Source: Xestospongia muta
Taxonomy: Eukaryota; Porifera; Demospongiae; Haplosclerida; Petrosiidae
Length of the DNA: 64,000 nucleotides
NCBI GenBank assembly: GCA_963693285.1
Contig: OY848924.1
Span: 681,501 to 745,500, forward strand
Direction: 5' to 3'
Below the pieces are notes generated by a model. It did not search any database. It was given only the letters and a program-made list of their open reading frames with translations, and was not told the origin of the DNA. Each line of letters opens with the position of its first letter. The first letter of the stretch is position 1. A program made the position numbers and the translations under genes. Below, one piece after another: positions 48,101 to 63,993 of the stretch.

Positions 48101-50699
48101 AAGAGATTAATCTAAGTACGATATACTGGTAGAGTCTGAAGTAACTGTAGTAGTGTGTTATTGTATATTAGTACACTCCTTACATTTATCATGTTGATAA
48201 CATCAAGTAAAACCTTCCCTAATAGCTAGAGGATGAATGTTATCTACTATCACTTAATAATGCTTTTGCTATATAGTTAGTAATAGTATGTGACAATAAT
48301 ATTTTATATTGTTTAGTTTGGCAAGACTCCATTGTACATAGCATGTTACTATGGTCATGATAAAGTAGTACAAGTATTACTAGACCATGGTGTTCAAGTG
48401 GATGTTCCAGACAAGGTCAGTGACAATAGTCAGTGTCAGGTAATAGTAGGTGTGGTCTGTTATAATAGTAGTACATATAGTTGACAATGATCTTGGTATT
48501 CACGGAGGTCCCACTAATATGGTGTGTACATGTCATTTGTACCCAAATCCTAAACCCTAAACAAGTGAACATAAGAAGAATAGCTAATAGTGAACCATTC
48601 TATTTTAATTTTGAGATAGACCATACTCTAGACATGTAAATCAGGTACAAGGACGTTATCTGGATGTTACCAAGAGGTGTGGTTAAAAATGGTCCAGCTA
48701 TTAATAATACTAGTAGTCATTAATTAATCATGGAGGTTACATATCGTGGTTAAATCACTAAATCAGTTAATCGAACATCACTACTATAGTCCCAGTTGTT
48801 TCTTATGATTAAACTTTTATAAATTAATTAATATATCTGTGGTAGTTGTAGTTTGTTATTTTCATTACATGTACTTCATAGTGACAATAAGAAGAATGGA
48901 GCATACATTATGGATGTTGAATAAGCTTATGTCATCCATGGATATATGTTACTCACTAGATATTAAACTCCCTATATCATGAATATATTAACATGTAATA
49001 GACATTGCTATTATAATAAACTTGTGGTTACATTGAGAATACACAGTTACCCCTTAATTCTGATAGACAAAGAGTAATGTCATGGAACAATGTGTCTTAT
49101 CTGGAGCTGTCCTTAACACATCTAAATTACCTATGGTTACTAATATAACTAGACCCCTCCCCTTAAAAAATTAGACCATAACATTGGTGGCATACTGGAC
49201 ATATATCTTGATTGGTTGCCAACAGCTTAAGATTATTGAAGAATAATCTCTCTTCTCATAGGAGGACTAGCACTATATTGCATATCAGTGGGTGTGGTTT
49301 ATAAAATAATAAAGTAATAGTTCTATGCCTTTTTATGTCCCTGTCATTGGTCAGGTTTGACATGATAATACAATAGCTATGATTATCTGTATTGATGACT
49401 GTTATATTGACTATATAGTTTATTGTATGATAGTTCCTGTACTTTTTGTAATTGAATAACTTTTCCTCTTTTGTTTTCTAGGATGGTAGAACAGCAGCAC
49501 ATTATGCAGCAGGGGAGGGTCATGTTGATGTTCTAAAGTTATTAATTGAAGAGGGACAAGCTGACATAAATGCTACAGATAATGTAAGTCATATTATAGT
49601 TACTTATGAGCTATTCCTTTGAAGTATGACATTTAATATTGTCTTCAATATTGGTATCAACCTCACTCATATCCAGACTGACCAATATTTTGATAACATG
49701 TTTTTGACAAAAGATGTTCCAAGAACAATAATCAAAAATAAAACTTGGATATTTGTTGTCAATGTAATATATAATAATTAATTTCTATAGAATCAGGAGA
49801 CAGTTCTATATTGGGTCTCAAGTAATGGTCATACTGAGATAGTCCAGTTACTCTTAGAACATCAAGCTGATCCCAATATTTGTAACAAGGTCGGTGTGTA
49901 TTGTGTATAGATATTGTTATATGTACTACATAGTATTAAGTCTATATGATACTAGTACAGGATATATAGTGTATAGTGTGAGTTAATGATATAATTGATG
50001 TTAATATTGTACTAGTCAATGTAACATATAATAATTAATTTCTGTAGTATCAGGAAACAGCTCTACATTGGGCCTCAAGAAATGGTCACACTGAGATAGT
50101 CCACTTACTCTTACAACATCAAGCTGATCCCAATATTCGTGATATGGTCAGTATTAGACTCACTTTGTTGATAATTTACTTTTTGTTAGTATGGTAATAT
50201 TGCATTGCATATTGCCTGCCGTGAGGGTCATCTTAATGTTATTAGCTGCTTGCTATCTGAAGGAGCAGATGTAAATGTTAAGAACAATGATGGTAAGAGT
50301 CCACTGGATGTATGTCAAGATACAAGCAGGGATAAAATTGTTAGTCTCTTTAACAAGTATAATCCAAAACGAGGTAAGGTATTATTAAAGATCAACAACA
50401 CTACATACTCACATATATATTTTATTTGTTATTATCTAGTTTTTGAAGATGTGTCTAAGTGGAATATTGAAAATATTGAAGAAGATCAGGTCTTTGAGAA
50501 AAGAGACTATGGAGTCATGTTAGTTATTCCACCATCAGCAGTAGAGAAGAAAGAAGAGATTGAAGCTGAAGTTAAGGTTGTTGCACCAGTGGAAGCAGAT
50601 ATCATTCTACCTCCAGATGTTGAGATTGTAAGCTGTTTCTATAAAAGTGAAACACCTGTAAAATTTTCAAAACCTATTGATCATGTGTGTGTGTTATAA
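124..50699 (+). CDS. Gene 1a: multi-ankyrin gene ending in a truncated ZU5-like exon
   Basis: This is a spliced gene model. The first coding exon is 124-165 (begins MAAQLSEEQQ), followed by donor GTAAGT. It is followed by 35 intact ankyrin-type exons listed in the block entries below, then exon 50190-50373 (phase 1 end) and a ZU5-like exon at 50440-50699. Ankyrin exons are 99 or 102 bp, phase 0 at both ends, one repeat each, with the T-A-L-H-x-A-S and I-V-Q-L-L-L signatures. The ZU5-like exon stops abruptly after KPIDHVCVL, where paralogues continue for about 100 residues. The start is uncertain: the frame stays open upstream to an acceptor-like TAG at 71-73, so more exons may lie outside the window. 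The product would be a long cytoplasmic ankyrin scaffold or receptor. Partner and function are unknown. Splicing across the duplicated units is unproven. Confidence 0.6.
166..1062. other. First intron of gene 1a
   Basis: The donor is GTAAGT at 166 and the acceptor TATATAG at 1062. It is A+T rich; I see no exon, repeat or element in it. The same holds for introns 1156-1552 and 3491-4125. Confidence 0.6.
1063..4224 (+). CDS. Gene 1a 5' ankyrin exons (four), outside the segmental duplication
   Basis: The exons are 1063-1155 (begins DDKLWDSARDGHLEG), 1553-1639 (29 codons, begins GTTPHTVAYIYGHN), 3392-3490 (begins DEILLTAAMRGLVDIV) and 4126-4224 (begins NDDTALHLASRNGHTKVV). All have AG acceptors and GTAAG or GTCAG donors, and all keep phase 0. 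The first resembles the second exon of gene 2 (D-x-A-x-D-G-x-L-E-G-V), so it is probably the capping repeat of the array. The second and third are divergent repeats. The fourth begins the NDDTALHLAS subfamily that is amplified downstream. Confidence 0.75.
2289..3085. mobile_element. TIR element with 24-bp perfect inverted ends
   Basis: ctatactctgtccgagttga at 2289 continues to 2312, and its exact inverse complement ends at 3085. The element is 797 bp and lies in the intron 1640-3391 of gene 1a. The 63-codon open stretch at 2392-2583 has no recognisable domain. I see no transposase, so it is a probable non-autonomous element. Confidence 0.7.
4254..5080 (+). mobile_element. TIR element, AACCTCRCTG family, inside the intron
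   Basis: Left end aacctcactg at 4255 and right end cagcgaggtt near 5071-5080 are inverted copies of each other. The element is about 830 bp and contains a GT microsatellite (about 4300-4322) and an open stretch starting GLERSNAFRK that I do not recognise. Further full copies are 5481-6308, 16616-17443 and 38057-38884; left-truncated copies begin at 15787 and 37228. It is probably a non-autonomous DNA transposon. Confidence 0.5.
5352..13022 (+). CDS. Gene 1a ankyrin exons of segmental unit 1 (six intact)
   Basis: The exons are 5352-5450 (NDDTALHLASRNGHTEVV), 6851-6952 (GRRTALHYASQGGYYDII, one extra Ile codon), 10900-10998, 11575-11673, 12250-12348 (three identical exons beginning EGNTPLYIASEEGNIEIV) and 12924-13022 (EGKTPLYVASENCYIEIV). 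Every exon is phase 0 to phase 0. The three EGNTPLY exons sit at an exact 675-bp spacing. A further copy at 10471-10568 is a relic and is listed separately. If all are spliced in, this block adds six ankyrin repeats. Confidence 0.7.
5481..6308 (+). mobile_element. TIR element, AACCTCRCTG family, second copy
   Basis: Same ends and content as 4254-5080, with a shorter interrupted GT run (gtgtctgtgtctgtgtg). The open stretch is extended to 94 codons. It belongs to the second exon-intron cassette and is repeated at 16616-17443 and 38057-38884. Confidence 0.5.
6578..6634. other. Deletion junction with tandem filler, unit 1
   Basis: An intron tail that should lead to an ankyrin exon (attattagaatgatgat in unit 2) changes to a twice-repeated 18-mer (agaataataagattcaat) and then enters the 80-bp repeat. 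The corresponding unit 2 positions are 17715 and about 27396. Exactly the same junction is at 39154-39210. Confidence 0.8.
7168..9150 (-). mobile_element. Internally deleted Ty3/gypsy-type LTR retrotransposon, unit 1
   Basis: The minus strand reads: right LTR about 8926-9150; a primer-binding-like tggtgacgaggg (complement of 8910-8921); gag from 8849 to 8460 (starts MAKHGSVGEFFPE); zinc-knuckle region about 8310-8215; protease motif LDTG at 8016-8005; a pre-RT segment 7930-7715; then directly an integrase C-terminal-like piece 7570-7380; a polypurine tract (aaggtgggaggaaa, 7322-7335); and a partial left LTR about 7168-7321. Reverse transcriptase, RNase H and the integrase core are missing. 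There are several stops, including TAA at 8273-8271 in place of a zinc-knuckle His. The two LTRs share about 150 bp. Confidence 0.75.
8460..8849 (-). pseudogene. gag fragment of the LTR element, unit 1
   Basis: 129 codons read on the minus strand, starting MAKHGSVGEFFPEREQW. Together with the downstream zinc-knuckle remnant this is typical of K02A2.6-like gypsy elements of marine invertebrates. The reading frame ends after GISHPAM, and the zinc-knuckle part continues in the same direction with stops. Identical copies are at 29226-29615 and 41036-41425. It is non-functional. Confidence 0.7.
9162..9963. mobile_element. TIR element related to the AACCTCRCTG family, unit 1
   Basis: The left end taacctcactgcctgctgtg and the right end (inverse complement begins aacctcgctgtgcgtg) match imperfectly. 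The right end also matches the left end of the 4254 element (gtgggcgcat and actgtagtctgt). It lies immediately next to the LTR element. Copies are at 29928-30729 and 41738-42539. The 61-codon open stretch inside it is not recognised. Confidence 0.45.
10471..10568 (+). pseudogene. Degenerate ankyrin exon, unit 1
   Basis: The sequence aligns with the EGKTPLY exons (KNDYVEIVEKLLKANANTD is readable), but it has a 1-bp deletion near the start, an in-frame TAA and no good acceptor. The donor has decayed to gtaaat. Copies are at 31237-31334 and 43047-43144. Confidence 0.75.
10590..12614 (+). repeat. 675-bp ankyrin exon-intron array, three copies (unit 1)
   Basis: The three copies start at about 10590, 11265 and 11940. 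Each holds one EGNTPLY exon, its acceptor tract (tctctctatatag) and, on the minus strand, a 160-bp gag fragment (11110-11270 and +675, +1350). A diverged fourth copy (to about 13310) carries the EGKTPLYV exon. Copies look identical or nearly so. Confidence 0.9.
13313..13725 (-). pseudogene. gag fragment fused to a headless ankyrin intron, unit 1
   Basis: 13313-13637 on the minus strand encodes a diverged gag piece (YFVANDIGGEAKKHAILL and onward), related to the gag at 8460-8849. It is followed at 13637-13725 by the end of a 675-type intron, up to its TATATA acceptor tract, where the exon itself is missing (aaaggcctatc replaces ggaaggc). Copies start at about 34754 and 45889. Confidence 0.65.
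13726..15740. other. Long non-coding intron part, unit 1
   Basis: I see no exon here. It holds a 16-bp palindrome (gtgtactatagtacac, 14023-14038) and two adjacent hairpins near 14645-14715 (gaatgcaaatttgcattc, then ggatgcaattttgcatcc). A caaagggttaa motif follows and could be a piggyBac-like end, but I found no partner end. The 61-codon open stretch at 14821-15006 has no supporting feature. Copies are at 35167-37181 and 46302-48316. Confidence 0.5.
15741..15989 (+). pseudogene. Truncated ankyrin exon running into a TIR element, end of unit 1
   Basis: A good acceptor (tattgtttag) is followed by FGKTPLYIACYYGH, then a breakpoint at 15783 into the interior of the AACCTCRCTG element. The frame stays open through AFRKRLQALKRLL to a stop at 15989. 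The donor is gone. If used, it would be a terminal exon that cuts the protein; if skipped, the frame is kept. The complete exon is at 48317-48415. Confidence 0.75.
16487..34463 (+). CDS. Gene 1a ankyrin exons of segmental unit 2 (fourteen intact)
   Basis: The exons are 16487-16585, 17715-17813 (both NDDTALHLAS type), 18222-18320 (WRHSPLHIAYWYGYDNIV), 18461-18562 (DDLLLTSAENGDIENV), 19276-19374 (YQQTALHYASKGGYYDIV), 20616-20717 (FGRTAAHYAAEKGHVDV), 23330-23428 (DQKTALHCASQRGYYDIV), 25232-25333 (FRQTAAHLAAENCHVDV), 27620-27718 (GRRTALHYASQGGYYDIV), 31666-31764, 32341-32439, 33016-33114, 33691-33789 (four EGNTPLY exons) and 34365-34463 (EGKTPLYV). All are phase 0. The stretch from 17715 to about 27396 exists only in this unit; units 1 and 3 have lost it. 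The FGRTAAH-type exons are 34 codons long because of the longer EEGQADIN turn. Confidence 0.7.
16616..17443 (+). mobile_element. TIR element, AACCTCRCTG family, unit 2 copy
   Basis: Same sequence as 5481-6308 at offset 11135. It lies in the intron after exon 16487-16585. Confidence 0.5.
18627..18892. mobile_element. Small TIR element (MITE) in unit 2
   Basis: Left end ataccgggatttattagcga and the right-end inverse complement ataccgtatactgggattta share a long imperfect inverted repeat that extends through gataaaatttggcg. It is about 265 bp with no coding content. Confidence 0.7.
18900..19145. repeat. Intron repeat, interrupted in its second copy
   Basis: It runs from gatcaattacaagcattta to ttgtactattagta. 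A second copy is split at 22283-22340 and 22425-22630, with an ankyrin exon fragment between the parts. Confidence 0.6.
21024..21228. mobile_element. Palindromic MITE, first copy
   Basis: ttcttggtgtaacttg (21024-21039) is exactly inverted at 21213-21228, with internal repeats of gatgacatca and its inverse. It is about 205 bp and lies in the intron after exon 20616-20717. Confidence 0.6.
22344..22430 (+). pseudogene. Fragment of an NDDTALHLAS exon with its acceptor, inserted in a repeat
   Basis: Intron tail and acceptor (ttgttttattactag) are followed by DNDTALHLA, and the sequence then switches at tttagcccca into a different repeat (cccacccagtcttgtagaca). The host repeat is seen uninterrupted at 18900-19145. 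The exon has no donor. Confidence 0.65.
23454..24056. mobile_element. TIR element with a helix-turn-helix relic
   Basis: taccgtagttccctga at 23454 is inverted at 24041-24056 (tcagggaactacggta). TA flanks suit a Tc1/mariner or pogo-type target site. On the plus strand from about 23640 a broken frame reads EAVETLRIHREHNVSVIAK, stop, YSIDRKHIREWG, which resembles a CENP-B/pogo-type DNA-binding helix-turn-helix. It is non-functional. Confidence 0.6.
24060..25070. repeat. Intron cassette of about 1 kb, repeated four times
   Basis: The sequence from about 24060 to 25070 is found again at about 26470-27480 and 48420-49320, and in shortened form at 19430-20095. It contains tagtaggtgtggt and gaggtgtggttaaaaatggt motifs. 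All copies lie between a TALHYAS-type exon and a TAAHYAA-type exon or its equivalent, so exon pair and intron were duplicated together. Confidence 0.65.
25636..25839. mobile_element. Palindromic MITE, second copy
   Basis: Copy of 21024-21228 in the intron after exon 25232-25333. One arm has a substitution (caagatacaccaagaa). Confidence 0.6.
26013..26472. mobile_element. Left-truncated copy of the 23454 TIR element
   Basis: It matches from the interior caaaaacagcttctagtaag to a right end ggggaactacctta. At the left it joins a sequence whose uninterrupted form is at 21391-21402. The helix-turn-helix relic is present here too. Confidence 0.6.
27398..27475. repeat. Short dispersed repeat of about 80 bp, six copies
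   Basis: It runs from ttgaagaataatctctcttc to gtgtggtttataaaataataaa. Copies begin at about 6634, 20015, 24983, 27398, 39210 and 49237. In units 1 and 3 it sits directly at the deletion junction. Confidence 0.75.
27934..29916 (-). mobile_element. Internally deleted Ty3/gypsy-type LTR retrotransposon, unit 2
   Basis: Copy of 7168-9150 at offset 20766, with the same deletion and the same stops. The gag fragment is 29615-29226 and the pre-RT segment 28696-28481. Shared defects show that it spread by segmental duplication, not by transposition. Confidence 0.75.
29928..30729. mobile_element. TIR element related to the AACCTCRCTG family, unit 2
   Basis: Copy of 9162-9963 at offset 20766. Confidence 0.45.
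31237..31334 (+). pseudogene. Degenerate ankyrin exon, unit 2
   Basis: Copy of the relic at 10471-10568, with the same stop and lost acceptor. Confidence 0.75.
31356..34055 (+). repeat. 675-bp ankyrin exon-intron array, four copies (unit 2)
   Basis: This is the same unit as in 10590-12614 but with four copies, with exons at 31666, 32341, 33016 and 33691. The third has a substitution that makes IVK from IVQ. Confidence 0.9.
34754..35166 (-). pseudogene. gag fragment fused to a headless ankyrin intron, unit 2
   Basis: Copy of 13313-13725 at offset 21441. Confidence 0.65.
37182..37430 (+). pseudogene. Truncated ankyrin exon running into a TIR element, end of unit 2
   Basis: Copy of 15741-15989 at offset 21441, with the same junction and stop. 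Confidence 0.75.
37928..48415 (+). CDS. Gene 1a ankyrin exons of segmental unit 3 (seven intact)
   Basis: The exons are 37928-38026 (NDDTALHLAS), 39427-39528 (34 codons with the extra Ile), 43476-43574, 44151-44249, 44826-44924 (EGNTPLY type), 45500-45598 (EGKTPLYV) and 48317-48415 (begins FGKTPLYIACYYGHDKVV). The last is the complete version of an exon that is cut off at the ends of units 1 and 2. Spacing and sequence match unit 1 at a constant offset of 32576 bp, with only scattered substitutions. The middle EGNTPLY exon carries Lys in place of Gln (IVK versus IVQ), as does the third EGNTPLY exon of unit 2. Confidence 0.7.
38057..38884 (+). mobile_element. TIR element, AACCTCRCTG family, unit 3 copy
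   Basis: Same sequence as 5481-6308 at offset 32576. It lies in the intron after exon 37928-38026. Confidence 0.5.
39744..41726 (-). mobile_element. Internally deleted Ty3/gypsy-type LTR retrotransposon, unit 3
   Basis: Copy of 7168-9150 at offset 32576, with the gag fragment at 41425-41036 and the pre-RT segment at 40506-40291. The structure and stops are unchanged. Confidence 0.75.
41738..42539. mobile_element. TIR element related to the AACCTCRCTG family, unit 3
   Basis: Copy of 9162-9963 at offset 32576. Confidence 0.45.
43047..43144 (+). pseudogene. Degenerate ankyrin exon, unit 3
   Basis: Copy of the relic at 10471-10568, with the same stop and lost acceptor. Confidence 0.75.
43166..45190 (+). 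repeat. 675-bp ankyrin exon-intron array, three copies (unit 3)
   Basis: The exons are at 43476, 44151 and 44826. The IVK variant sits in the second copy. Confidence 0.9.
45889..46301 (-). pseudogene. gag fragment fused to a headless ankyrin intron, unit 3
   Basis: Copy of 13313-13725 at offset 32576. Confidence 0.65.
49482..50373 (+). CDS. Gene 1a last ankyrin exons before the ZU5-like exon
   Basis: The exons are 49482-49583 (DGRTAAHYAAGEGHVDV), 49791-49889 (NQETVLYWVSSNGHTEIV), 50048-50146 (YQETALHWASRNGHTEIV) and 50190-50373 (YGNIALHIACREGHLNVI). The last is 184 bp, holds one repeat plus the start of a C-terminal capping repeat (KNNDGKSPLDVCQ), and ends in phase 1. The same 184-bp exon precedes the ZU5 exon in gene 1b (51547) and gene 2 (61049), so it marks the end of the ankyrin array in the family. 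The following intron (50374-50439) is only 66 bp. Confidence 0.8.
50440..50699 (+). pseudogene. Truncated ZU5-like exon of gene 1a
   Basis: It starts after a TATCTAG acceptor in phase 1 and encodes the conserved start DVSKWNIENIEEDQVFEKRD, then the VMLVIPPSAVEKK strand, then KFSKPID. At that point it leaves the family sequence (paralogues read KPIELYLQHN) and ends HVCVL-stop. About 100 residues of the ZU5-like exon, plus UPA, death domain and C-terminus, are missing. The sequence right after the break matches the 3' part of the first intron of a paralogue. The break is therefore a fusion point, not a natural terminus. The exon could be skipped from mature RNA. Confidence 0.75.
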
Positions 50700-50723: not shown

Positions 50724-53700
50724 AGCTATGAGTTACTTCTTTTCAATGCTGCTAAAGATGGAGACCTAGAGGGAGTGATGTCAGCTCTTATGAATGGAGC
50801 AGATGTAAATTATAGAGATGAGGTTAGTTTTAAGTAATAATCCTGTTCTCACAGATAAAATTAGTAAGAATACTTAGTACATATACTTGTTACTGAAAAT
50901 AGTTTAATAATTAATGACATCTCAAACTAGCGATGTTTATTGTATTATTAATTGTGAACTTAATTCCACTGTTTAGTGAATGAAATGCTTTAACTTACAA
51001 TAAAATGATGAGTCATCAATAAAACAATTGATTGAATATTATATGTGACACATCTCTCTATCAGAATAAATATTAGAATATCTTATAATGAGTACTGATA
51101 TCAATATTGTACTTGTCATTGTAACTTATAATAATTAATTTCTCTAGGATCAGCAGACAGCTCTATATTGGGCCTCAAAGAATGGTCACACTGAGATAGT
51201 CCAGTTACTCTTAGAACATCAAGCTGATTCCAATATTTGTAACAAGGTCAGTGTGTATTGTGTACAGATATTGTTATATGTATTACATAGTATTAAGTCT
51301 ATATGATACTAGTACAGGATATATAGTGTATAATATGAGTTAGGGATATAATTGATGTTAATGTTGTACTAGTCAATGTAACCTGTAATAATTAATTTCT
51401 GTAGGATCAGTGGACAGCTCTACATAAGGCCTCATGTAATGGTCACACTGAGATAGTCCAGTTACTCTTAAAATATAATGCTGATCTTAATATTTGTGAA
51501 GTGGTCAGTATAAGAGTTGTATTATCAATAATTTACTTTTTGTTAGTATGGTAATACTGCATTACATATTGCCTGCCGTGAGGGTCATCTTAATGTTATT
51601 AGCTGCTTGCTCTCTGAAGGAGTAGATGTAACTGTTAAGAACAATGATGGTAACACTCCCCTTGAAAAATGTCCAGATACAAGCAGAGATGAAATTGTTA
51701 GTCTCTTTAACAAGTATAATCCAAAACGAGGTGAGGTATTATTAAAGATCAACAACACTACACACTCACACATATCTTATTTGTTATTATCTAGTTTTGG
51801 AAGATGTGTCTAAGTGGAATATTGAAAATTTTGAAGAAGACCAGGTCTTTGAGAAAAGAGATCATGGAGTCATGTTAGTTATTCCATCATCAGCAGTAGA
51901 GAAGAAAGAAGAAGTTGAAACTGAAGTTAAGGTTGTTGCACCAGTGGAAACAGATATCATTCTTCCTCCTGATGTTGAGGTTGTGAGCTGTTTCTATAAA
52001 ATTGAAACAACTGGAAAATTTTCAAAACCTATTGAGCTTTATCTTCAACATAATGTTGAACTGGCATCACAAGAAGAATGTGATCATTTAGCCTTTATAA
52101 AAACTGAAGGTCCACCACCTTATAAATTCCAGTTATTGCCCACTGATGCACAAAAGTTTAGGCCTAATGAAAACTCTGGAGTTGTTAGGTTCTGTGATTC
52201 CTCTTCAATTGCGGTCGTTTATCGTAAGAAAGTCACAAAAATGTTTCGACAGCCATCTTGCAGTTATGTAGTGACAGTTTTTGTCAAGCAGATGATGAAA
52301 TCTTGTTGGGAAATACGAGCAGTAGTCACAAAGAATCTTGGACCTTTCTTAAAGGTATATTTGTCAAATAATGAAAAGATTAAATAGTTCTTGTCATTGG
52401 AAATTTAAAAGATATTAATGTTATTCATAATGTGCTCTTGTGTTTGTTAGAGAGTAATGACTGATGCTTGTTTTGAAAGTTGGAAGAGAATAGAACCAGT
52501 CTCTTTCTTCTTTGATCCTGACATTAATGAAGTGACAATTACTAATGAGTACTATGAGATCAAGCCAATGATCAATCCATTTCAAGTAAAGTATTTGTTG
52601 ATGTTGTGACTATTTTATTTTTACTTTATCAAAGGTTTCTAAGGAAAGCGTTGATAAATGTCAACCTGATACTGCACTGCCTTATTTAAAATTTAAAGCC
52701 TTTCTTAAAGATGATGAAGAGGTTACTGACCTTGAGCTCACTTTTAAAGGAATGAGAGAAGAGACAAGCTTAGTGATTGCTAGTTATGATTTGCAACAAA
52801 TCAAAGGTATGGAAATGAGACAATTAAAGCCTTTTTAATTAATATATACATAATTTAATATGTAATGAATGACTTTACAAGGCTAAATTAATAATATATT
52901 TTATGTAGATATACCTGCTCCTACTTCAACTGCTAGTACTCCTAGTTCTGTTGATAATAAATCTTCTACTAGTACTCCTCCTATTGCCAGTAATCCTTCT
53001 CATTCCAGTACAGAATCTTCATGTCAACCAAATATTCCAAATGACTTGTTATGTGAGTCATTTTAGTATAAACTGAAAGCTCTCATTGAAGATTGTACTT
53101 TAACATTATGTAATATTATGGAAAAGTGTTTTTCTTCATTAGATAAGGAACCAAAGAAATGTCACTTGATGACATTACTTCATCCAATTAAGTATATGTG
53201 GAATACTATTGGTGGACAACTTGAAGTGCGTAATGGTGATATAAAGTCTGCAGAGTACAATGAGTCATATGGAGATACCACAAAACTCTCTGAAGTCCTT
53301 CAGGTCTGGATGGATAAGAAAACTAGTCTGGTTTGTTGGAAAACAATTATTACTGTTGTAGAAGAGCCACCTGTAGAAAACAAAGTAGTAGGTAATAAGA
53401 TATATGAGTTCTTAACAAGACAAGAAATTCAGAATGAATATCAGTCTCCCCATAATCAGACTGGTAATATGAAAGTTTATTATGTATATAAATGTTGTAA
53501 TCACTCAGGTCAGCTGATCACTACATTTAATTCTCCTCCTCCAATTGCACCAAAACCTGGTAAGAATGAAGGTACTAGAGTAATTTATTTCTTTATGCTC
53601 CAAGAGAGTGAATGATCATTTTTTCTTCTTCTAGTGGAGATAGTTGAACAAGATGCTCCATTATCATCATCTAATTCTACTGAAGTAAGACTATTTTATA

Positions 53701-54891
53701 AAGTATCCTTTCTCTATATCTTCCTCTTTCCTAAATTATATAGATTAATACAGAGTCTGTTCAACTACAACCTGTATGTTATAAACACATATCATACCTG
53801 TAATATTACAGCTCTCTGCATGTTCTCAATTTAAATATAATAATAAATTACAACTTTGTTGCCATTGACAACCAGTCTAGTTATTGATTCCTTCTGTTTC
53901 TTTGGTAGACTAATCCTTTGACGCAGCAAGATGTTACTGACCTTGAGCTCACTTTTAAAGGAATGAGAGAAGAGACAAGTTTAGTGATTGCTAGTTATGA
54001 TTTGCAACAAATCAAAGGTATGGAAATGAGACAATTAAAGCCTTTTTAATTAATATATACATAATTTAATATGTAATTAATAACTTTACAAGACCAAATT
54101 AATAATTTATTTTCAAATAGATATACCTGCTCCTCCGCCACCTACTCCTCTTTCTACTAGTGAATTTTTGTCTCCTCATCATCAGACTGGTAAAATGATT
54201 TTCATGTAACAAATGTTCCTTTGTTATCACTCAAGATCAGCAGATCACTACATTTTATTCTCCTCCTCAAATGGGACCAAAACCTACTGCACAAAAAGGT
54301 ACGTGTGCTATCCATTATTGTATATTGAAGGATACATACCTTTTTTCGTTTGTTTGTTATTATAGATCACCTTATATCTGCTGTTATTCTTCCTCCAATT
54401 GCACCAGAATCTGTTACAACGAAAGGTACACAATAGACTCATAAGTACTTATTTATAATTTATTACTGTAGATGGTCCTTTATCTGATCCTTCACTTCTA
54501 GTTACACCAAACCCTGCTAAGAATGAAGGTACTAGAGTAATATATTTTTGTATCCTCCAGAGAGTGAATGATTATTTTTTCTTTTCCTAGTGGAGATAGA
54601 TGAAATGGAACAAGAAGCTCCATTACCAACATCTAATTCTATTGGAGTAAGAACTATTTTATAAAGTATCCTTTCTCTATATCTTCCTCTTTCCTGAATT
54701 ATATAGATTAATACAGAACCTGATCAACTACAATCTGTATGTTATAAACACATACCATACCTGTAATATTACACATACTACTATTACAGGGAATGAGAAA
54801 CAAAGCTGAGAATAATGAGTCTTCTCTACATATAATAACAATTTTAGTTGCCTTCATCATGGGTTATTTCATAGGAACATACAAATCTTAG
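50724..54891 (+). CDS. Gene 1b: ankyrin-ZU5-UPA-(death)-membrane anchor, lacking its own first exon
   Basis: The exons are 50724-50822 (begins SYELLLFNAAKDGDLEGV), 51148-51246, 51405-51503, 51547-51730, 51795-52354, 52451-52585, 52635-52806, 52909-53463, 53509-53559, 53635-53684, 53909-54017, 54121-54189, 54236-54298, 54366-54425, 54472-54528, 54591-54646 and 54790-54891. Phases agree at every join and the sum is 840 codons including the stop. The architecture is four ankyrin exons, ZU5-like, UPA-like, death-like, proline-rich linkers, a second half-UPA and a C-terminal hydrophobic anchor. The counterpart of gene 2 exon 1 is absent, so gene 1b either depends on the gene 1a promoter as one fused gene or is a pseudogene. 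There is an in-frame TAG at 53064-53066 inside the death exon. Confidence 0.6.
51795..52354 (+). CDS. ZU5-like exon of gene 1b
   Basis: This 560-bp exon (phase 1 in, phase 0 out) encodes about 187 residues beginning DVSKWNIENFEEDQVFEKRD. Beta-rich ZU5 features are the VMLVIPSSAVEKKEE segment, the DIILPPDVEVVSC segment and GPPPYKFQLLP. The last third (PSCSYVVTVFVKQ, EIRAVVTKNLGPF) is conserved with gene 2. ZU5 domains in ankyrins, UNC5 and PIDD pair with UPA and death domains, which is exactly the order here. Assignment rests on motif recognition and domain order. Confidence 0.65.
52451..52806 (+). CDS. UPA-like exon pair of gene 1b
   Basis: Exons 52451-52585 (begins RVMTDACFESWKRIEPV) and 52635-52806 (begins VSKESVDKCQPDTALPYL, ends LVIASYDLQQIK). 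The second contains the LKFKAFLKDDEEVTDLELTF segment, which suits a UPA domain lying between ZU5 and death. The 49-bp intron between them shows the compact introns typical of this locus. The second half of this exon is duplicated at 53909-54017. Confidence 0.6.
52909..53463 (+). CDS. Ser/Thr/Pro linker plus death-like domain exon of gene 1b, interrupted by TAG
   Basis: The exon opens with a Ser/Thr/Pro-rich linker (DIPAPTSTASTPSSV), then a helical region with death-fold spacing: LLHPIKYMWNTIGGQLEV, SEVLQVWMDKKTS, CWKTIITVVEEPPVENKV. The W-x-x-I-G and V-L-x-x-W signatures and the Cys-Trp-Lys-x-I-I motif are typical of death domains. At 53064-53066 the frame reads TAG where gene 2 has TAC. A perfect donor GTGAGT starts at 53053, 11 bp before the stop, and would leave phase 1, matching downstream acceptors. 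The death region may be untranslated in this copy, skipped by splicing, or the TAG may be a sequencing error. Confidence 0.65.
53909..54646 (+). CDS. Duplicated half-UPA and linker exons with the death domain excised
   Basis: Exon 53909-54017 repeats the last 30 or so codons of the UPA exon (VTDLELTFKGMREETSLV). Exon 54121-54189 repeats the start of the linker/death exon (DIPAPPPPTPLSTS) and jumps straight to its end (SPHHQTG), so the death domain is missing from the copy. Exons 54236-54298, 54366-54425, 54472-54528 and 54591-54646 encode short proline-rich pieces (TTFYSPPQMGPKP, LPPIAPESVTTK, VTPNPAKNE) and the acidic VEIDEMEQEAPLPTSNSIG. All five phase-1 acceptors agree. Confidence 0.65.
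54790..54891 (+). CDS. C-terminal membrane-anchor exon of gene 1b
   Basis: After a CTATTACAG acceptor the exon encodes GMRNKAENNESSLHIITILV, then AFIMGYFIGTYKS and a TAG stop. Roughly 17-18 hydrophobic residues lie within the last 25 residues and are followed by a short polar Lys-containing end. This matches a tail anchor: a protein inserted after translation, with the ankyrin and death part facing the cytosol. The target membrane cannot be told. Gene 2 has a different exon at the same phase-0 junction. Confidence 0.7.
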   Translation, partial: GMRNKAENNESSLHIITILVAFIMGYFIGTYKS

Positions 54892-58322: not shown

Positions 58323-61300
58323 ATGGCTGATATAAAACTCACTTCTGATGAAAGGAATCAGGTGAGTTTGTATAGTATATGTACTATATAGTGTGTAGTA
58401 CAAACATTTTATATCATTGTTATAAATGGACATACCCTTCTAAAAATGTACATTAATGGGGTTACTTATAGTATATAATTGTATAGGGTCCAATAGTTAA
58501 TATTAGACAATTGTCCACTTCATATTATTAACATATTAAGGCTGAGCTGGCAAAACAAAGTAGGAGAATGTATTAAGTTATTACTATGATACCTTCTTTG
58601 GTTTAATTCTTGCAGAAACATCCTCCATTTAAAGTTATCTATGTATTATAATCTATATCTTTCTATTTTCAGAGCTATGACTTACCTTTTTTTGATGCTG
58701 CTAAAGATGGAGACCTAGAGGGTGTGAAATCAGCTCTTAAGAATGGAGCAGATGTAAATTACAGAAACAAGGTTAGTTTTAAATAACAATTCAGAATAGC
58801 AGAAATATCTTTCAATAAAATTAATAAGAATACTTAGTACATATACTTGTTACTGAAAACAGTTTAATAATTAATGACATCTCAAGTAATGTTTTGTTGT
58901 ATTATTAATTGTGAACTTAATTCCACTGTTTAGTGAAATGAAATGCTTTTAATTACAATAAAATGATGAGTCATCAGTAAAACAAGTGATTAAATATTAT
59001 ATGTGACACACCTCTCTATCAGAATAAATATTAGAATATCTTATAATGAGTACTGATATCAATATTGTACTAGTCAATGTAACTTATGATAAGTAATTTT
59101 TATAGAATCAGCAGACAGCTCTACATTGGGTCTCAAAAAATGGTTATATTGAGATAGTCCAGTTACTCTTACAACATCAAGCTGATCCTAATATTTGTAA
59201 CAGGGTCAGTGTGTATTGTGTATATTGTTGTATGTACTACACAGTATTAAGTCTATATCATACTAGTACAGGATATACAGTGTATAGTGTGAGTTAGTGA
59301 TATAATTGTTGTTAATGTTGTATAGTTAATGTAACATATAATATTTAATTTCTGTAGTATCAGAATACGGCTCTACTACAAGCCTTGAATGAAGGTCATT
59401 CTGAGATAGTCCTGTTACTCTTAAAATATAATGCTAATCCCAATATTCGTGACAGGGTCAGTATGTATTGTGTATATTGTTGTATGTACTACATAGTATT
59501 AACTCTATATCATACTAGTACAGGATATACAGTGTATAGTGTGAGTTAGTGATATAATTGATGTTAATATTGTACTAGTCAATGTAACATATAATAATTA
59601 ATTTCTATAGTATCAGGAGACTGCTCTATATAAGGCCTCAAGAGATGGTCACACTAAGATAGTCCAATTACTCTTAAAATATTATGCTGATCCCAATATT
59701 CGTGATAAGGTCAGTGTGTATTGTGTATAGATATTGTTTTATATACTACATAGTATTTCTTTATCATACTAGTACAGGATATATAGTGTATAGTGTGAGT
59801 TAGTGATATAATTGATGCTAATATTGTATTAGTCAATGTAACATATAATGATTGTTTTCTCTAGGATCAGCGGACAGCTCTATATTGGGCCTCAGGGAAT
59901 GGTCACACTAAAATAGTTCAGTTACTCTTAAAACATAAAGCTGATCCTGATATTTGTGACAGGGTTAGTATGTATTGTGTATAGATATTGTTGTATGTAC
60001 TACACAGTATTAAGTCTATATCTTAGTAGTACAGGATATACAGTGTGCAGTGTGAGTTAGTGATATAATTGTTGTTAATGTTGTACTAGTCAATGTAACA
60101 CATAATATTTAATTTCTATAGGATCAGGAGACTGCTCTACATAAGGCCTCAAGAGATGGTCACACTGAGATAGTCCAATTACTCTTAAAATATAATGCTG
60201 ATCCCAATATTTTTGATAAGGTAGGTGTGTATTGTGTGTAGATATTGTTTTATATACTACATAGTATTAAGTCTATATCATACTAGTACAGGATATATAG
60301 CGTATAGTGTGAGTTAGTGATATAATTGATGTTAATGTTGTACTAGTCAATGTAACATATAATAATTAATTTCTGTAGTATCAGAAGACAGCTCTATATT
60401 GGGCCTCATGGAGATGTAATACTGACATAGTCCAGTTACTCTTACAATATGAAGCTGATCCCAATATTTGTAACAAGGTCAGTGTGTATTATGTATAGAT
60501 ATTGTTGTATGTACTACATAGTATTAAGTCTATATCATACTAGTACAGGATATAATAGTGTATAGTATGAGTTAGTTATATATTTTATGTTAATGTTGTA
60601 CTAGTCAATGTAACTTATAATAATTAATTTCTGTAGGATCAGCAGACATATCTATTTTGGGCCTCAATAAATGGTTACACAGAGATTGTTCAGTTACTCT
60701 TGCAACATAAAGCTGATCCCAACATCTGTGACAAGGTCAGTAACAGTGTGTATTTTGTATAGATATTGTTGTATGTACTACATAGTATTAAATCTATATC
60801 ATACTAGTACAGGATATATAGTGTATAGTATGAGTTAGTGATATAATTTATGTTAATATTGTACTAGTTAATGTAACTTATAATAATTAATTTCTCTAGC
60901 ATCAGCAGACAGCTATATATTGGGCCTCATATTATGGTCACACTGAGTTAGTCCAGCTACTTTTGCAAAATAAAGCTAAGCCCAATATTCGTGATATTGT
61001 TAGTACTCATTTGGTTGATAATTTCGTTGATAATTTACTTTTTGTTAGTATGGTGATACTGCATTGCATATTGCTTGCTGTAAGGGTCATCTTAATGTTA
61101 TTAGCTGCTTGCTATCTGAAGGAGCAGATTTTACTATTAAGAACAATGATGGTAAGACTCCCCTTGAAAAATGTCCAGATACAACCAAGGATAAAATTGT
61201 TAGTCTTATTAACAAGTATAATCCAAAGCGAGGTGAGGTATTATTAAATATCAACAACACTACATACTCACATATATATTTTGTTTGTTATTATCTAGTT

Positions 61301-63993
61301 TTGGAAGATGTGTCTAAGTGGAATATTGAAAATGTTGAAGAGGACCAGGTCTTTGAGAAAAGAGACTATGGAGTCATGTTAGTTATTCCATCATCAGCAG
61401 TAGAGAAGAAAGAAGAAGTTAAAACTGAAGTTAACGTTGTTGCACCAGTGGAAACAGATATAATTCTACCTCCTGATGTTAAGCTTGTGAGCTGTATCTA
61501 TAAAATTGAAACAACTGGAAAATTTTCAAAACCTATTGAGCTTTATCTTCAACACAATGTTGAACTCACATCACAAGAAGAATGTGAACAGTTAGCTTTT
61601 ATAAAAGCTAAAGGTCCACCACCTTATAAATTTGAGTTGATGCCTACTGAAGGACAAGAGTTTAGACCTTATGACAATTCTGGAGTTGTTAGACTCTGTG
61701 ATTTCTCTTCAGTTGCTGTAGGTTATATTAAGAAAAAGTTGAAAAAAATAAAGAGTGTTCTATTTCGACAACCATCTTGCAGTTATGTAGTGACAGTTTT
61801 TGTCAGACACATGGAGAAATTTTGTTGGGAAATACATGCAATAGTCACAAAGAATCTTGGACCTTTCTTAAAGGTATATTTGTCAAATAATGAAAAGATT
61901 AAATGGTTCTTATCATTGGAAGTTTAAAAGATATTAATGTCATTCATAATATGTTTTTGTGTTTGTTAGAGAGTAATGACTGAGGCTTGTTTTGAAAGTT
62001 GGAAGAGAATAGAACCAGTCTCTTTCTTCTTTGATCCTGACATTAATGAAGTGACAATTACTAATGAGTACTATGAGATCAAACCAATGATCAATCCATT
62101 TCAAGTAAAGTATTTAGTTGATGTTGTGACTATTTTATTTTTACTTTATCAAAGGTTTCTAAGGAAAGCATTGATAAATGTCAACCTGATACTGCCCTCC
62201 TTTACCTAAAATTTAAAGCCTTTCTTAAAGATGATGAAGATGTTACTGACCTTGAGCTTAATTTTAAAGGAATGAGAGAAGAGACAAGTTTAGTGATTGC
62301 TAGTTATGATTTGAAACAAATCAAAGGTATGGAAATGAGACAATTAAAGCCTTTTTAATTAATATATGCATAATTTAATATGTAATGAATGACTTTACAA
62401 GCTAAAATAATAATATATTTTTATGTAGATATACATGCTCCTACTTCAACTGCTAATACTCCTAGTTCTGTTGATAATCAATCTTCTACTAGTACTCCTC
62501 CTATTGCCAGTAATCCTTCTCATTCCAGTACAAAATCTTCATGTCAACAAAATATTCCAAATGACTTGTTATGTGAGTCATTTTACTGTAAAATAAAAGT
62601 TGTTATTAGACATTGTACTTTAACATTATGTAATATTATGGAAAAGCATTTTTCTTCATTAGATAAGCAACCAAAGAAACGTTACCTGATGACATTACTT
62701 CACCCAATTAAGTATATGTGGAATACAATTGGTGAACAACTTGAAGTGCATTATGGTGATATAAAGTCTGCAGAGTACAATGTGGCATATGACCATACCA
62801 CAAAACTATCTGAAGTCCTTCAGGTCTGGATGGATAAGAAAACTCGGCTGGTTTGTTGGCAAACAATTATTACTGTTGTAGAAGAGAGACCTGTAGAAAA
62901 CAAAGCAGTAGCTGATGAGATATATCAGTTCTTAACAAGACCAGATATTCAGAATGAATATCTGTCTTCTCATCATCAGACTGGTAAAATGATTTTTATT
63001 ATTTATAAAAATGTTCTTTGTCATCACTCAAGGTCAAATGATAAGTACTTTTAATTCTCCTCCTCCAATTGTACCAAAACCTACTGAAAAGAAAGGTATA
63101 AAGTCTAATCAAATTTTAGATTAATCATCAATTTTTTTCCTTTTCTAGTGGAGATAGATGTTGATGATGAAATGGAACAAGAATCTCCTCCATTACCATC
63201 ATTTGATCCTTTTGGAGTAAGTGCTATTTTAAAAACTATCAAAATACCTTTATCTTTCTTAGTTTGCTGCTCATTGTCTTCTTAAAAAAGCTAAACAATG
63301 GGAAGAGAAAGATAATGATATGATAGTAGCTGCTAAACGAATGGCCAAACTAATGATGCAAATGTCAAAGTTTGAAAAGTAAGTGTCATAGAATGAAATG
63401 TGTACTTTAGTTAACTTATATATAAGTTTTCTTATGAACTGAATCATTTCTTTGGATTTCTATGTATAGAAAACAAGTATATCTGTAACTATAGAATTAT
63501 GTTCTGACTAATGGTCTATATCATGTTTGATGATCCTCCTTTATAGAGACGAAGCAGGTGATGTCACTTCTAAAGAAGATTTTATACAAACAGCTCACCT
63601 TATTGTCAAAGAAAGTGAAGAGGTTGTCAATATAGCAGCAAAAGTTGTTGAAGCCTGTACAGACACACAACTGAAAAATGTGAGTTAAATTGTTAAATAA
63701 TAAAATTGTACATATATAGAGTAATTTTTAAGTACTAGTAATAAATACAGAGATTGATTGATTGTATAATTTATAATTTGCTAGCATTTCTGATTATATT
63801 GATTAGTCATGACTATAAGGAAAGTCAGTTTTTTACTCCTGTATATGACTGTTTGTAAAACTTTGTTTCAACTAGTTTTGTATTTTCTTTATAGACTCTA
63901 TCACAAGTTATTGATGGTATTCCAAACTATGCTACTCAACTCAAAATTAATGTTGATGTGCATGGAAGAAGAGAAGGAGATAGTATGTTATAA
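58323..63993 (+). CDS. Gene 2: ankyrin-ZU5-UPA-death-vinculin-tail-like protein
   Basis: The exons are 58323-58361, 58673-58771, 59106-59204, 59358-59456, 59611-59709, 59865-59963, 60122-60220, 60379-60477, 60637-60735, 60900-60998, 61049-61232, 61299-61873, 61970-62104, 62155-62326, 62429-62983, 63033-63095, 63149-63216, 63263-63378, 63547-63679 and 63895-63993. They give 1009 residues with no internal stop. The ATG at 58323 has an in-frame TGA just upstream, which supports the start. Ankyrin repeats cover residues 14-371, ZU5-like 372-563, UPA-like 564-665, Ser/Thr/Pro linker from 666, death-like about 735-835, proline/acidic linker 851-894 and vinculin-tail-like 895-1009. The product is probably an intracellular scaffold joining death-fold signalling to the actin or adhesion machinery; that role is inference. 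The 3' end may continue past the window, because GTATGT at 63983 is a good donor. Confidence 0.8.
58673..61232 (+). CDS. Ankyrin exon array of gene 2 (ten exons)
   Basis: Nine exons of exactly 99 bp, each one repeat and phase 0, are separated by short introns of roughly 50 to 350 bp. The closing 184-bp exon is 61049-61232. The first encodes SYDLPFFDAAKDGDLEGV. The next eight share the (D/N/Y/H)-Q-x-T-A-L-x-x-A-S start and the I-V-Q-L-L-L-(Q/K) helix. The introns between 59205 and 60899 are also alike (donor GTCAGTGTGTATTGTGTAT, then a shared body of about 120-150 bp), so the array grew by tandem duplication of exon plus intron. Confidence 0.85.
61299..61873 (+). CDS. ZU5-like exon of gene 2
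   Basis: This 575-bp exon is homologous to 51795-52354, with five extra codons in the KKLKKIKSVLF stretch. It begins DVSKWNIENVEEDQVFEKRD and carries the same VMLVIPSSAVEKKEE, DIILPPDVKLVSC and GPPPYKFELMP segments. It is intact, so it serves as the reference for the truncated exon at 50440. The 66-bp intron before it (61233-61298) is stop-free and a multiple of three. Confidence 0.7.
61970..62326 (+). CDS. UPA-like exon pair of gene 2
   Basis: Exons 61970-62104 (RVMTEACFESWKRIEPV) and 62155-62326 (VSKESIDKCQPDTALLYL to LVIASYDLKQIK) are nearly identical to the gene 1b pair. They follow the ZU5-like exon and precede the death-like exon, the order known from ankyrins, UNC5 and PIDD. Phases are 0, 0, then 1 out. 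Confidence 0.6.
62429..62983 (+). CDS. Ser/Thr/Pro linker and intact death-like domain exon of gene 2
   Basis: This 555-bp exon, phase 1 in and out, is the same length as the gene 1b exon but has TAC where that copy has TAG. Death-fold signatures are PIKYMWNTIGEQLEV, LSEVLQVWMDKKTR and CWQTIITVVEERPVENKAVA, followed by a terminal helix (DEIYQFLTRPDIQNEYL). The same GTGAGT donor motif is present at 62573, so a death-less isoform is possible here too. Death domains mediate homotypic assembly; the partner is unknown. Confidence 0.7.
63263..63993 (+). CDS. Vinculin-tail-like C-terminal exons of gene 2
   Basis: The exons are 63263-63378, 63547-63679 and 63895-63993. The first encodes FAAHCLLKKAKQWEEKDNDM then VAAKRMAKLMMQMSKF. 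The second ends VVEACTDTQLKN and the third begins TLSQVIDGIPNYATQLKI. The K-x-W-x-x-x-x-N-D-x-I-x-A-A-K-R-M-A-x-L-M motif, the C-T-D motif and the I-P-x-x-x-T-Q-L-K-I motif, in this order and spacing, are hallmarks of the vinculin tail (less closely alpha-catenin C-terminus), a helical bundle that binds F-actin and phosphoinositides. About 115 residues are visible, roughly the first three helices. The remainder may lie beyond the window. The segment follows a proline/acidic linker, as in vinculin itself. Confidence 0.8.

What the first reader, a model, noticed from the sequence alone, without database searches (positions are those of the whole stretch)
63263..63993. Vinculin-tail-like module fused to an ankyrin-ZU5-UPA-death protein
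The last three exons of gene 2 encode the vinculin-tail signature in the right order: K-x-W-x(4)-N-D-x-I-x-A-A-K-R-M-A-x-L-M, then A-C-T-D-T, then I-P-x-x-x-T-Q-L-K-I. They join in frame (phases 0, 2, 0) to a gene whose upstream exons are ankyrin, ZU5, UPA and death-like. I know of no described protein with this combination. It could couple death-fold signalling to actin or adhesion sites. The motif match is seen; the function is inferred.
Basis: partly seen in the sequence, partly recalled or inferred. Interest (0 to 1): 0.88.

Follow-up and report, generated by a model that had tools for sequence, protein, structure and literature searches.

The report
Sponge death-fold gene with vinculin tail
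A sponge-type gene built like an ankyrin-repeat, death-fold signalling protein appears to have captured the linker and actin-binding tail end of a vinculin gene, while its neighbouring sister gene kept only the linker and ends in a likely membrane anchor instead.

Summary
Exons at 63263-63982 encode helices 1-4 of a vinculin tail (Pfam Vinculin E 2.6e-28; 62% identical to a sponge-type vinculin), in frame with a 21-exon ankyrin/ZU5-like/death-like gene whose 20 introns are all GT-AG. Two corrections: exon 63149-63216 already aligns with the vinculin linker, so the fusion point is the 53-bp intron 63096-63148; and UPA was not detected, while ZU5 and Death lie below Pfam cut-offs. New evidence: the tandem sister gene (50724-54891) has two copies of this linker exon with the same splice phases. 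The better one is 14/17 identical to Amphimedon vinculin (0 of 1000 shuffles as good). The sister ends in a hydrophobic anchor instead of the tail. So the capture is probably older than the duplication, and a separate gene or assembly chimera is unlikely. The tail keeps I997 but has lost basic residues (R945E, K975T, R976Q; net charge -2 against +5 to +10 in nine vinculins). Best reading: one sensor core given different C-terminal addresses, actin or membrane. No RNA evidence; decay is a real rival; helix 5 lies beyond the window.

The parts
58323..61232 (+). Gene 2 exons 1-11: start codon, then ankyrin repeats; exons 2-10 are one-repeat exons of 99 bp, exon 11 is 184 bp
   Evidence: GT-AG introns, phase 0 between repeats; Pfam Ank E 6.1e-81
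61299..61873 (+). Gene 2 exon 12: ZU5-like region
   Evidence: Pfam ZU5 20.0 bits, cut-off 21, E 8.5e-4; same match in the paralog at 20.1 bits
61970..62572 (+). Gene 2 exons 13-15 (61970-62104, 62155-62326, 62429-62572): region after ZU5 and a Ser/Thr/Pro-rich linker; UPA not detected
62663..62983 (+). Gene 2 exon 16: death-like domain
   Evidence: Pfam Death 16.6 bits, cut-off 22.6; low-confidence six-helix model, pLDDT 57.7; the first three of six Foldseek matches are death-domain entries, best E 0.36, none at 0.001 or better
63033..63095 (+). Gene 2 exon 17: proline-containing exon of the ankyrin family (GQMISTFNSPPPIVPKPTEKK), last exon before the vinculin part
   Evidence: homologue in gene 1
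63096..63148 (+). Fusion-point intron, 53 bp, phase 1
63149..63216 (+). Gene 2 exon 18: vinculin-derived linker (VEIDVDDEMEQESPPLPSFDPFG)
   Evidence: BLASTP alignment to P0001 begins in this exon; on its own only marginal, 10 of 1000 shuffles as good against P0003 and 7 of 1000 against P0001; aligns with the gene 1 linker exons at DNA level
63263..63378 (+). Gene 2 exon 19: vinculin-tail helices 1-2
63547..63679 (+). Gene 2 exon 20: vinculin-tail helix 3
63895..63982 (+). Gene 2 exon 21: vinculin-tail helix 4; donor GTATGT follows, so helix 5 and the C-terminal arm, if present, lie beyond the window
50724..53559 (+). Gene 1 (tandem paralog) core: ankyrin, ZU5-like, death-like, exon-17 homologue
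   Evidence: 89.5% DNA identity between 51103-53558 and 60592-63082
53635..53684 (+). Gene 1 first copy of the vinculin-linker exon, directly after the exon-17 homologue, diverged (VEIVEQDAPLSSSNSTE)
   Evidence: score 44 against P0003 (0/1000 shuffles), 38 against P0001 (2/1000)
54591..54646 (+). Gene 1 second copy of the vinculin-linker exon (VEIDEMEQEAPLPTSNSIG), in an internally duplicated stretch further on
   Evidence: 14/17 identical to A. queenslandica vinculin P0003 (0/1000 shuffles); 13/19 to P0001 (0/2000 shuffles)
54790..54891 (+). Gene 1 last exon: hydrophobic C-terminal tail (SLHIITILVAFIMGYFIGT) and stop, where gene 2 has the vinculin tail
   Evidence: Kyte-Doolittle mean 1.9 over 19 residues, against at most 1.25 for any 19-residue stretch of gene 2

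Best explanation
Gene 2 is a genuine chimeric gene, most likely of a haplosclerid-like demosponge. An ankyrin/ZU5-like/death-like gene acquired, through the 53-bp intron 63096-63148, the linker and tail exons of a vinculin gene of its own lineage (shown: homology, frame, splice signals, linker exon shared with the sister gene). The capture came before the gene 1/gene 2 duplication, and gene 1 later had its tail replaced by a hydrophobic anchor (inferred). Mechanism (inferred): the ankyrin repeats recognise a ligand, the death-like domain nucleates signalling, and the C-terminal module sets the location: actin filaments through the vinculin tail in gene 2, membrane through the tail anchor in gene 1. 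Without a vinculin head the tail cannot be held closed, so actin binding, if kept, would be constitutive; loss of head- and lipid-facing basic residues fits this.
For: Vinculin match E 2.6e-28. Identity to sponge-type vinculins runs without a break from exon 18 into exon 19, in the same register (...PFG|FAAH against ...PIGFAAH). Gene 1 has two copies of the linker exon with the same phases (1 in, 0 out); at DNA level they align with exon 18 and parts of its flanking introns. No vinculin head exon was found in the window: full-length P0001, P0003 and P0005 (tblastn, E up to 10) hit only linker, proline-rich and tail stretches. A tree of 18 rows puts the gene 2 tail with Amphimedon vinculin and P0001 (support 93/92), inside the sponge side of a 100/100 split. 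All 20 introns are GT-AG. An unconstrained pseudogene at this divergence stayed free of stops in 2.3% of 2000 simulations. I997 is kept, the position whose change to Ala reduces actin binding (PMC10721916, passages). Changed positions R945, K975 and R976 are head- or lipid-contact positions in human vinculin (PMC5807537, PMC7384861, passages).
Against: No RNA evidence was available. Helix 5 and the C-terminal arm are outside the window. The best-matching gene 1 linker copy is not directly after the exon-17 homologue but in a duplicated stretch further on. The tail evolves fast (branch 0.63 against 0.14-0.15 for its nearest vinculins; the program flags its place as unsure), and its replacements are hardly more conservative than simulated neutral ones (36% against a mean of 33%). 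Actin-contact position R976 is changed, and R987 and N980 are not kept either, as in its nearest vinculins. No other fusion protein was found, though these searches see only part of what exists. Death and ZU5 assignments are below Pfam cut-offs.
Confidence: 0.62

Rival explanations
1. The vinculin-tail exons belong to a separate downstream gene or gene fragment, and the gene model joins two neighbours.
For: Gene-fusion models without RNA support are often annotation artefacts in helminths (PMC12964723, abstract). An in-frame ATG exists inside exon 18 (DEM; sequence, translation). No RNA data here.
Against: Only 53 bp separate exon 17 from exon 18. An exon-18 homologue sits directly after the exon-17 homologue in gene 1, with the same phases, inside a gene that runs on in frame to a stop. 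No vinculin head exons found in the window.
Confidence: 0.1
2. The fusion is real but the tail is a decaying relic with no actin function, already lost in gene 1 and under relaxed constraint in gene 2.
For: Fast branch; replacements hardly more conservative than neutral ones; 11 of 43 columns invariant in seven sponge vinculins are changed, among them R976; positive charge lost.
Against: No stop or frameshift in 112 codons (2.3% of 2000 neutral simulations); splice sites intact; changes against P0001 are somewhat rarer at the invariant columns (11/43) than at the others (31/69), Fisher p 0.046, a comparison biased in favour because part of the difference lies on the P0001 branch.
Confidence: 0.22
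3. The linker similarity in gene 1 is convergence of acidic, proline-containing sequence, so only gene 2 carries vinculin exons and the fusion is recent.
For: Linkers are low in complexity; taken alone the gene 2 linker is marginal (10 of 1000 shuffles reach its score against P0003).
Against: The second gene 1 linker copy shares an 11-residue identical run with A. queenslandica vinculin and scores 68 against a shuffle maximum of 43; it ends exactly where the tail begins in vinculin, and it aligns with the gene 2 exon at DNA level.
Confidence: 0.06

Closest known systems
Vinculin, sponge type (P0001 and others unnamed, P0003 Amphimedon queenslandica, P0005 Ephydatia muelleri, P0007 Halisarca dujardinii)
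   Same: Linker and tail helices 1-4, 50-62.5% identical over the tail in seven proteins; I997 and D974 kept
   Different: No head domains D1-D4 found in the window; basic head/lipid-contact residues lost; net charge -2 instead of +5 to +10; joined to ankyrin/ZU5-like/death-like domains
Ankyrins (ANK-ZU5-UPA-Death; recalled architecture)
   Same: Order ankyrin repeats, ZU5-like, death-like
   Different: About ten repeats rather than 24 (recalled), UPA not detected, C-terminal vinculin tail; the cytoskeletal link would be direct to actin and not through spectrin
PIDD and UNC5 (ZU5-UPA-Death; recalled architecture)
   Same: ZU5-like before death-like domain
   Different: Ankyrin repeats at the N terminus; no HFS-like autoproteolysis motif found by pattern (motif recalled)
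DAPK1 (ankyrin repeats, cytoskeleton-binding region, death domain; recalled)
   Same: Ankyrin repeats and death domain in a protein linked to the cytoskeleton
   Different: No kinase domain in the Pfam scan; actin link would come from a vinculin tail

Membership tests
Vinculin family (tail domain) | Significant match to Pfam PF01044 in the tail part of the profile | tested here: met
   99.3 bits against 38.1, profile 646-785 of 852
Vinculin family (tail domain) | Five-helix bundle with C-terminal arm | tested here: inconclusive
   Helices 1-4 present by alignment; helix 5 and arm beyond the window end; no structure was predicted for the spliced tail
Vinculin (full protein) | Head domains D1-D4 | tested here: not met
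   tblastn of three full-length sponge-type vinculins against the window finds only linker, proline-rich and tail stretches
Vinculin (full protein) | Head-tail contact residues D974, K975, R976, R978 and K944, R945 | tested here: not met
   D974 and K944 kept, R978 is K as in 6 of 7 sponge vinculins; K975T, R976Q, R945E; roles from PMC5807537 (passages)
Vinculin (tail function) | F-actin binding | not testable with these tools
   I997 and Q983 kept, R976 not; R987 and N980 not kept, but nor are they in P0001 and P0003; contacts from PMC10721916 (passages)
Ankyrin/ZU5/UPA/Death supermodule proteins | Ankyrin repeats | tested here: met
   E 6.1e-81
Ankyrin/ZU5/UPA/Death supermodule proteins | ZU5 domain | tested here: inconclusive
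   20.0 and 20.1 bits against 21 in two paralogs; structure model too poor to use, pLDDT 33.4
Ankyrin/ZU5/UPA/Death supermodule proteins | UPA domain | tested here: not met
   no Pfam match listed at E up to 10 in either paralog; a diverged UPA could escape
Ankyrin/ZU5/UPA/Death supermodule proteins | Death domain | tested here: inconclusive
   14.6-18.0 bits against 22.6 in 4 of 5 family members scanned on their own, not listed for the whole protein; six-helix model of pLDDT 57.7 with death-domain entries as first three of six fold matches, best E 0.36

The most novel reading that the evidence does not exclude
The cluster is an immune-like tandem family in which a signalling core swaps C-terminal address modules, and the vinculin tail is an integrated decoy or cytoskeleton guard: a host adhesion part built into a death-fold receptor, so that interference with actin or with the vinculin tail triggers signalling. 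This would be an animal analogue of the integrated-decoy receptors of plants (recalled).
Probability: 0.1. Interest if true: 0.9.

Novelty: new variant of a known kind. Interest (0 to 1): 0.6.

Why it matters
As far as I recall, the vinculin tail is known only in vinculin and, as a relative, in the catenins. A tail detached from its head and placed behind a death-fold sensor would let one ask how actin attachment works without head-tail autoinhibition, and whether early animals wired cytoskeletal state into death-fold signalling. The sister genes with alternative C-termini (actin tail, membrane anchor) offer a natural domain-swap pair.

Tried and rejected
Assembly chimera: rejected, because exon 17, intron and exon 18 align with gene 1 and exon 18 continues into exon 19 in the register of vinculin. 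Alpha-catenin origin: rejected, catenins score 1.4e-8 at best against 1.2e-21 for vinculin. Structure of the ZU5-like exon: pLDDT 33.4, not used. PIDD-type autoproteolysis: no HFS-like pattern (motif recalled). Conservative-replacement test for selection: did not support constraint (36% of 42 changes against a neutral mean of 33%). dN/dS between gene 1 and gene 2 over 502 codons of six exons: 0.075/0.139, about 0.54; the death-like exon alone 0.101/0.117, and one exon has dN 0.048 with dS 0, so the core evolves fast and this gives only weak support for constraint. Own-genome search for the downstream exons and for the bona fide vinculin: not completed. Protein searches have limited reach: one search missed the Amphimedon vinculin P0003, which lies in its length range and turned up, so absence of other fusions there means little. 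Literature: seven searches on the subject gave listings (10 of 10, 20 of 176, 12 of 39, 12 of 76, 3 of 3, 10 of 31, 6 of 13 papers) in which I saw no report of such a fusion; the library lacks most subscription papers.

Full report
What is in the sequence. I rebuilt gene 2 by hand from open stretches and splice signals. It has 21 exons in the window, 58323-63982, all 20 introns GT-AG, 976 residues without a stop, running off the window at a donor. Pfam finds ankyrin repeats (E 6.1e-81) and, at residues 829-969, Vinculin (99.3 bits, cut-off 38.1, E 2.6e-28, profile positions 646-785 of 852). ZU5 is just below its cut-off in both paralogs (20.0 and 20.1 against 21 bits). Death is below cut-off for the isolated exon (16.6 against 22.6 bits) and not listed for the whole protein; of four database relatives scanned, three match at 17.1, 18.0 and 14.6 bits and one does not. 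UPA is not found. The closest solved structure is VIN1, 6bfi, E 1.2e-21, then other vinculins; alpha-catenins come far behind.

Whose tail it is. A database search with the ZU5-to-end part gave two proteins above threshold among 5571 candidates, both full vinculins. P0001 is 62% identical over 128 residues and P0002 56% over 120. That search missed the Amphimedon vinculin, so its silence on other fusions means little. A search with the P0001 tail listed 120 of 1787 matches; the nearest named ones are vinculins of Amphimedon queenslandica (P0003), Ephydatia muelleri (P0005) and Halisarca dujardinii (P0007). None of the 120 listed carries an ankyrin accession; the other 1667 were not shown. In a tree of 18 rows the gene 2 tail falls with Amphimedon and P0001 (support 93/92; with P0001 alone 83/40) on a branch of 0.63, which the program flags as long and of unsure place. 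The window is thus most likely from a haplosclerid-like demosponge, and the tail from that lineage's own vinculin. A. queenslandica belongs to Haplosclerida. The species itself was not identified.

Where the junction is. Taken alone the gene 2 linker is only marginal (10 of 1000 shuffles as good against P0003, 7 of 1000 against P0001). The decisive point is the tandem sister, gene 1. In it the exon-17 homologue (53509-53559) is directly followed by an exon with the same phases that reads VEIVEQDAPLSSSNSTE (53635-53684); further on, in an internally duplicated stretch and after two extra proline-rich exons, comes a second copy, VEIDEMEQEAPLPTSNSIG (54591-54646). The first copy scores 44 against P0003 (0 of 1000 shuffles) and 38 against P0001 (2 of 1000). 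The second is 14/17 identical to A. queenslandica vinculin residues 666-682 (score 68, shuffle maximum 43, 0 of 1000) and 13/19 to P0001 (score 69, 0 of 2000 and 0 of 1000), and ends exactly where the tail starts in vinculin. Against the other sponge vinculins the second copy scores less: P0006 39 (0 of 1000 shuffles as good), P0007 32, P0004 29, P0005 28, P0002 28. So the linker is of the Amphimedon/P0001 type. At DNA level the three linker exons align, with similarity in parts of the introns on either side that fades in the intron before the tail exon. Full-length vinculins P0001, P0003 and P0005 hit the window only at these linker exons, at adjoining proline-rich sequence and at the gene 2 tail.

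What this means. The linker exon was in place before the two genes separated, so it is part of the gene family and not the first exon of a neighbour. The fusion point is the 53-bp phase-1 intron 63096-63148. Gene 1 ends instead in a 30-bp exon and GMRNKAENNESSLHIITILVAFIMGYFIGTYKS, whose hydrophobic stretch averages 1.9 on the Kyte-Doolittle scale over 19 residues, a likely tail anchor. Either gene 1 lost the tail and gained the anchor, or it received only the linker, for instance by conversion; the first seems simpler to me. Both are inferences.

The state of the tail. Of 43 columns invariant in seven sponge vinculins gene 2 keeps 32. I997, whose change to alanine reduces actin binding, and Q983 are kept; R976, which also contacts actin and is invariant in the seven, is not. 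R987 and N980 are not kept either, but P0001 and P0003 lack them too (contacts from PMC10721916, passages). R945 has become E, K952 H, K966 A, K975 T and R976 Q; the net charge of helices 1-4 is -2 against +5 to +10 in the seven sponge vinculins, VIN1 +7 and human +10. K944 and R945 face head domain D1 and acidic lipid, and D974, K975, R976 and R978 face D4 (PMC5807537 and PMC7384861, passages). Loss of these is what one expects of a tail without its head. It could be simple relaxation. A neutral simulation leaves no stop in 2.3% of 2000 runs at this divergence, which speaks against a pseudogene, but the replacements are hardly more conservative than neutral. I treat decay as a serious rival.

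The death-like domain. An alignment of 15 family members gave a six-helix model of low confidence (pLDDT 57.7). Its first three Foldseek matches, of six, are death-domain entries (FADD E 0.36 with probability 0.84, Fas-FADD E 3.2, p84 E 5.7); none reaches 0.001. With the repeated sub-threshold Pfam matches this makes a death fold likely, not shown. The search with the death-like domain plus tail gave 13 matches among 267 candidates, one being gene 1 itself and the other 12 from the source ena without species names; all cover the death-like part, none the tail. So the family is larger than this window.

How it most likely works. The ankyrin repeats bind a ligand or partner, the ZU5-like and death-like part signals, and the C-terminal exons give the address: actin for gene 2, membrane for gene 1. 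Shown: the sequence parts and their homology. Inferred: expression, actin binding, membrane insertion, signalling. Known relatives in plan are ankyrins, PIDD, UNC5 and DAPK1 (recalled). Lineage-specific architectures with death-superfamily domains are known in Amphimedon, and fusions with a UPA-ZU5 module in animals (PMC8195603, passages), so the core is a known kind. The vinculin tail is the new part, and I saw no report of it in the listings of seven full-text searches.

Noticed in passing
4652-15782 and 37228-48358; 10578-17717 and 32019-39158: Very large near-identical duplications inside the window (99.95% over 11131 bp; 99.9% over 7140 bp): recent segmental duplication or an assembly duplication.
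   Followed up: no
8460-8906, 29226-29672, 41036-41482 (- strand); 5784-6149, 16919-17284, 38360-38725 (+ strand): Two sets of three identical open reading frames, 148 and 121 aa; the 148-aa one looks gag-like by eye only.
   Followed up: no
59106-60998: Ankyrin repeats as one-repeat exons of exactly 99 bp with phase-0 introns of 153-164 bp, tandemly duplicated at 83-85% DNA identity: a ready system for changing repeat number.
   Followed up: partly
53635-54736: Gene 1 has an internal duplication after the death-like exon: linker exon and INTE..QLQ mini-exon of 30 bp occur twice, and the end of the exon-14 homologue recurs at 53909-54017.
   Followed up: partly
50190-50699: A truncated ankyrin/ZU5 copy that runs into a stop just before gene 1's first ankyrin exon used here.
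   Followed up: no
P0121 (database protein): 92% identical to the gene 2 death-like part, same as the gene 2 reading frame at both ends but different in the middle, by eye: an allele or a further copy with a mosaic pattern. Its cluster lists a contig of the same length (478834 bp) as that of window protein P0124, which may simply be the window's own contig.
   Followed up: no
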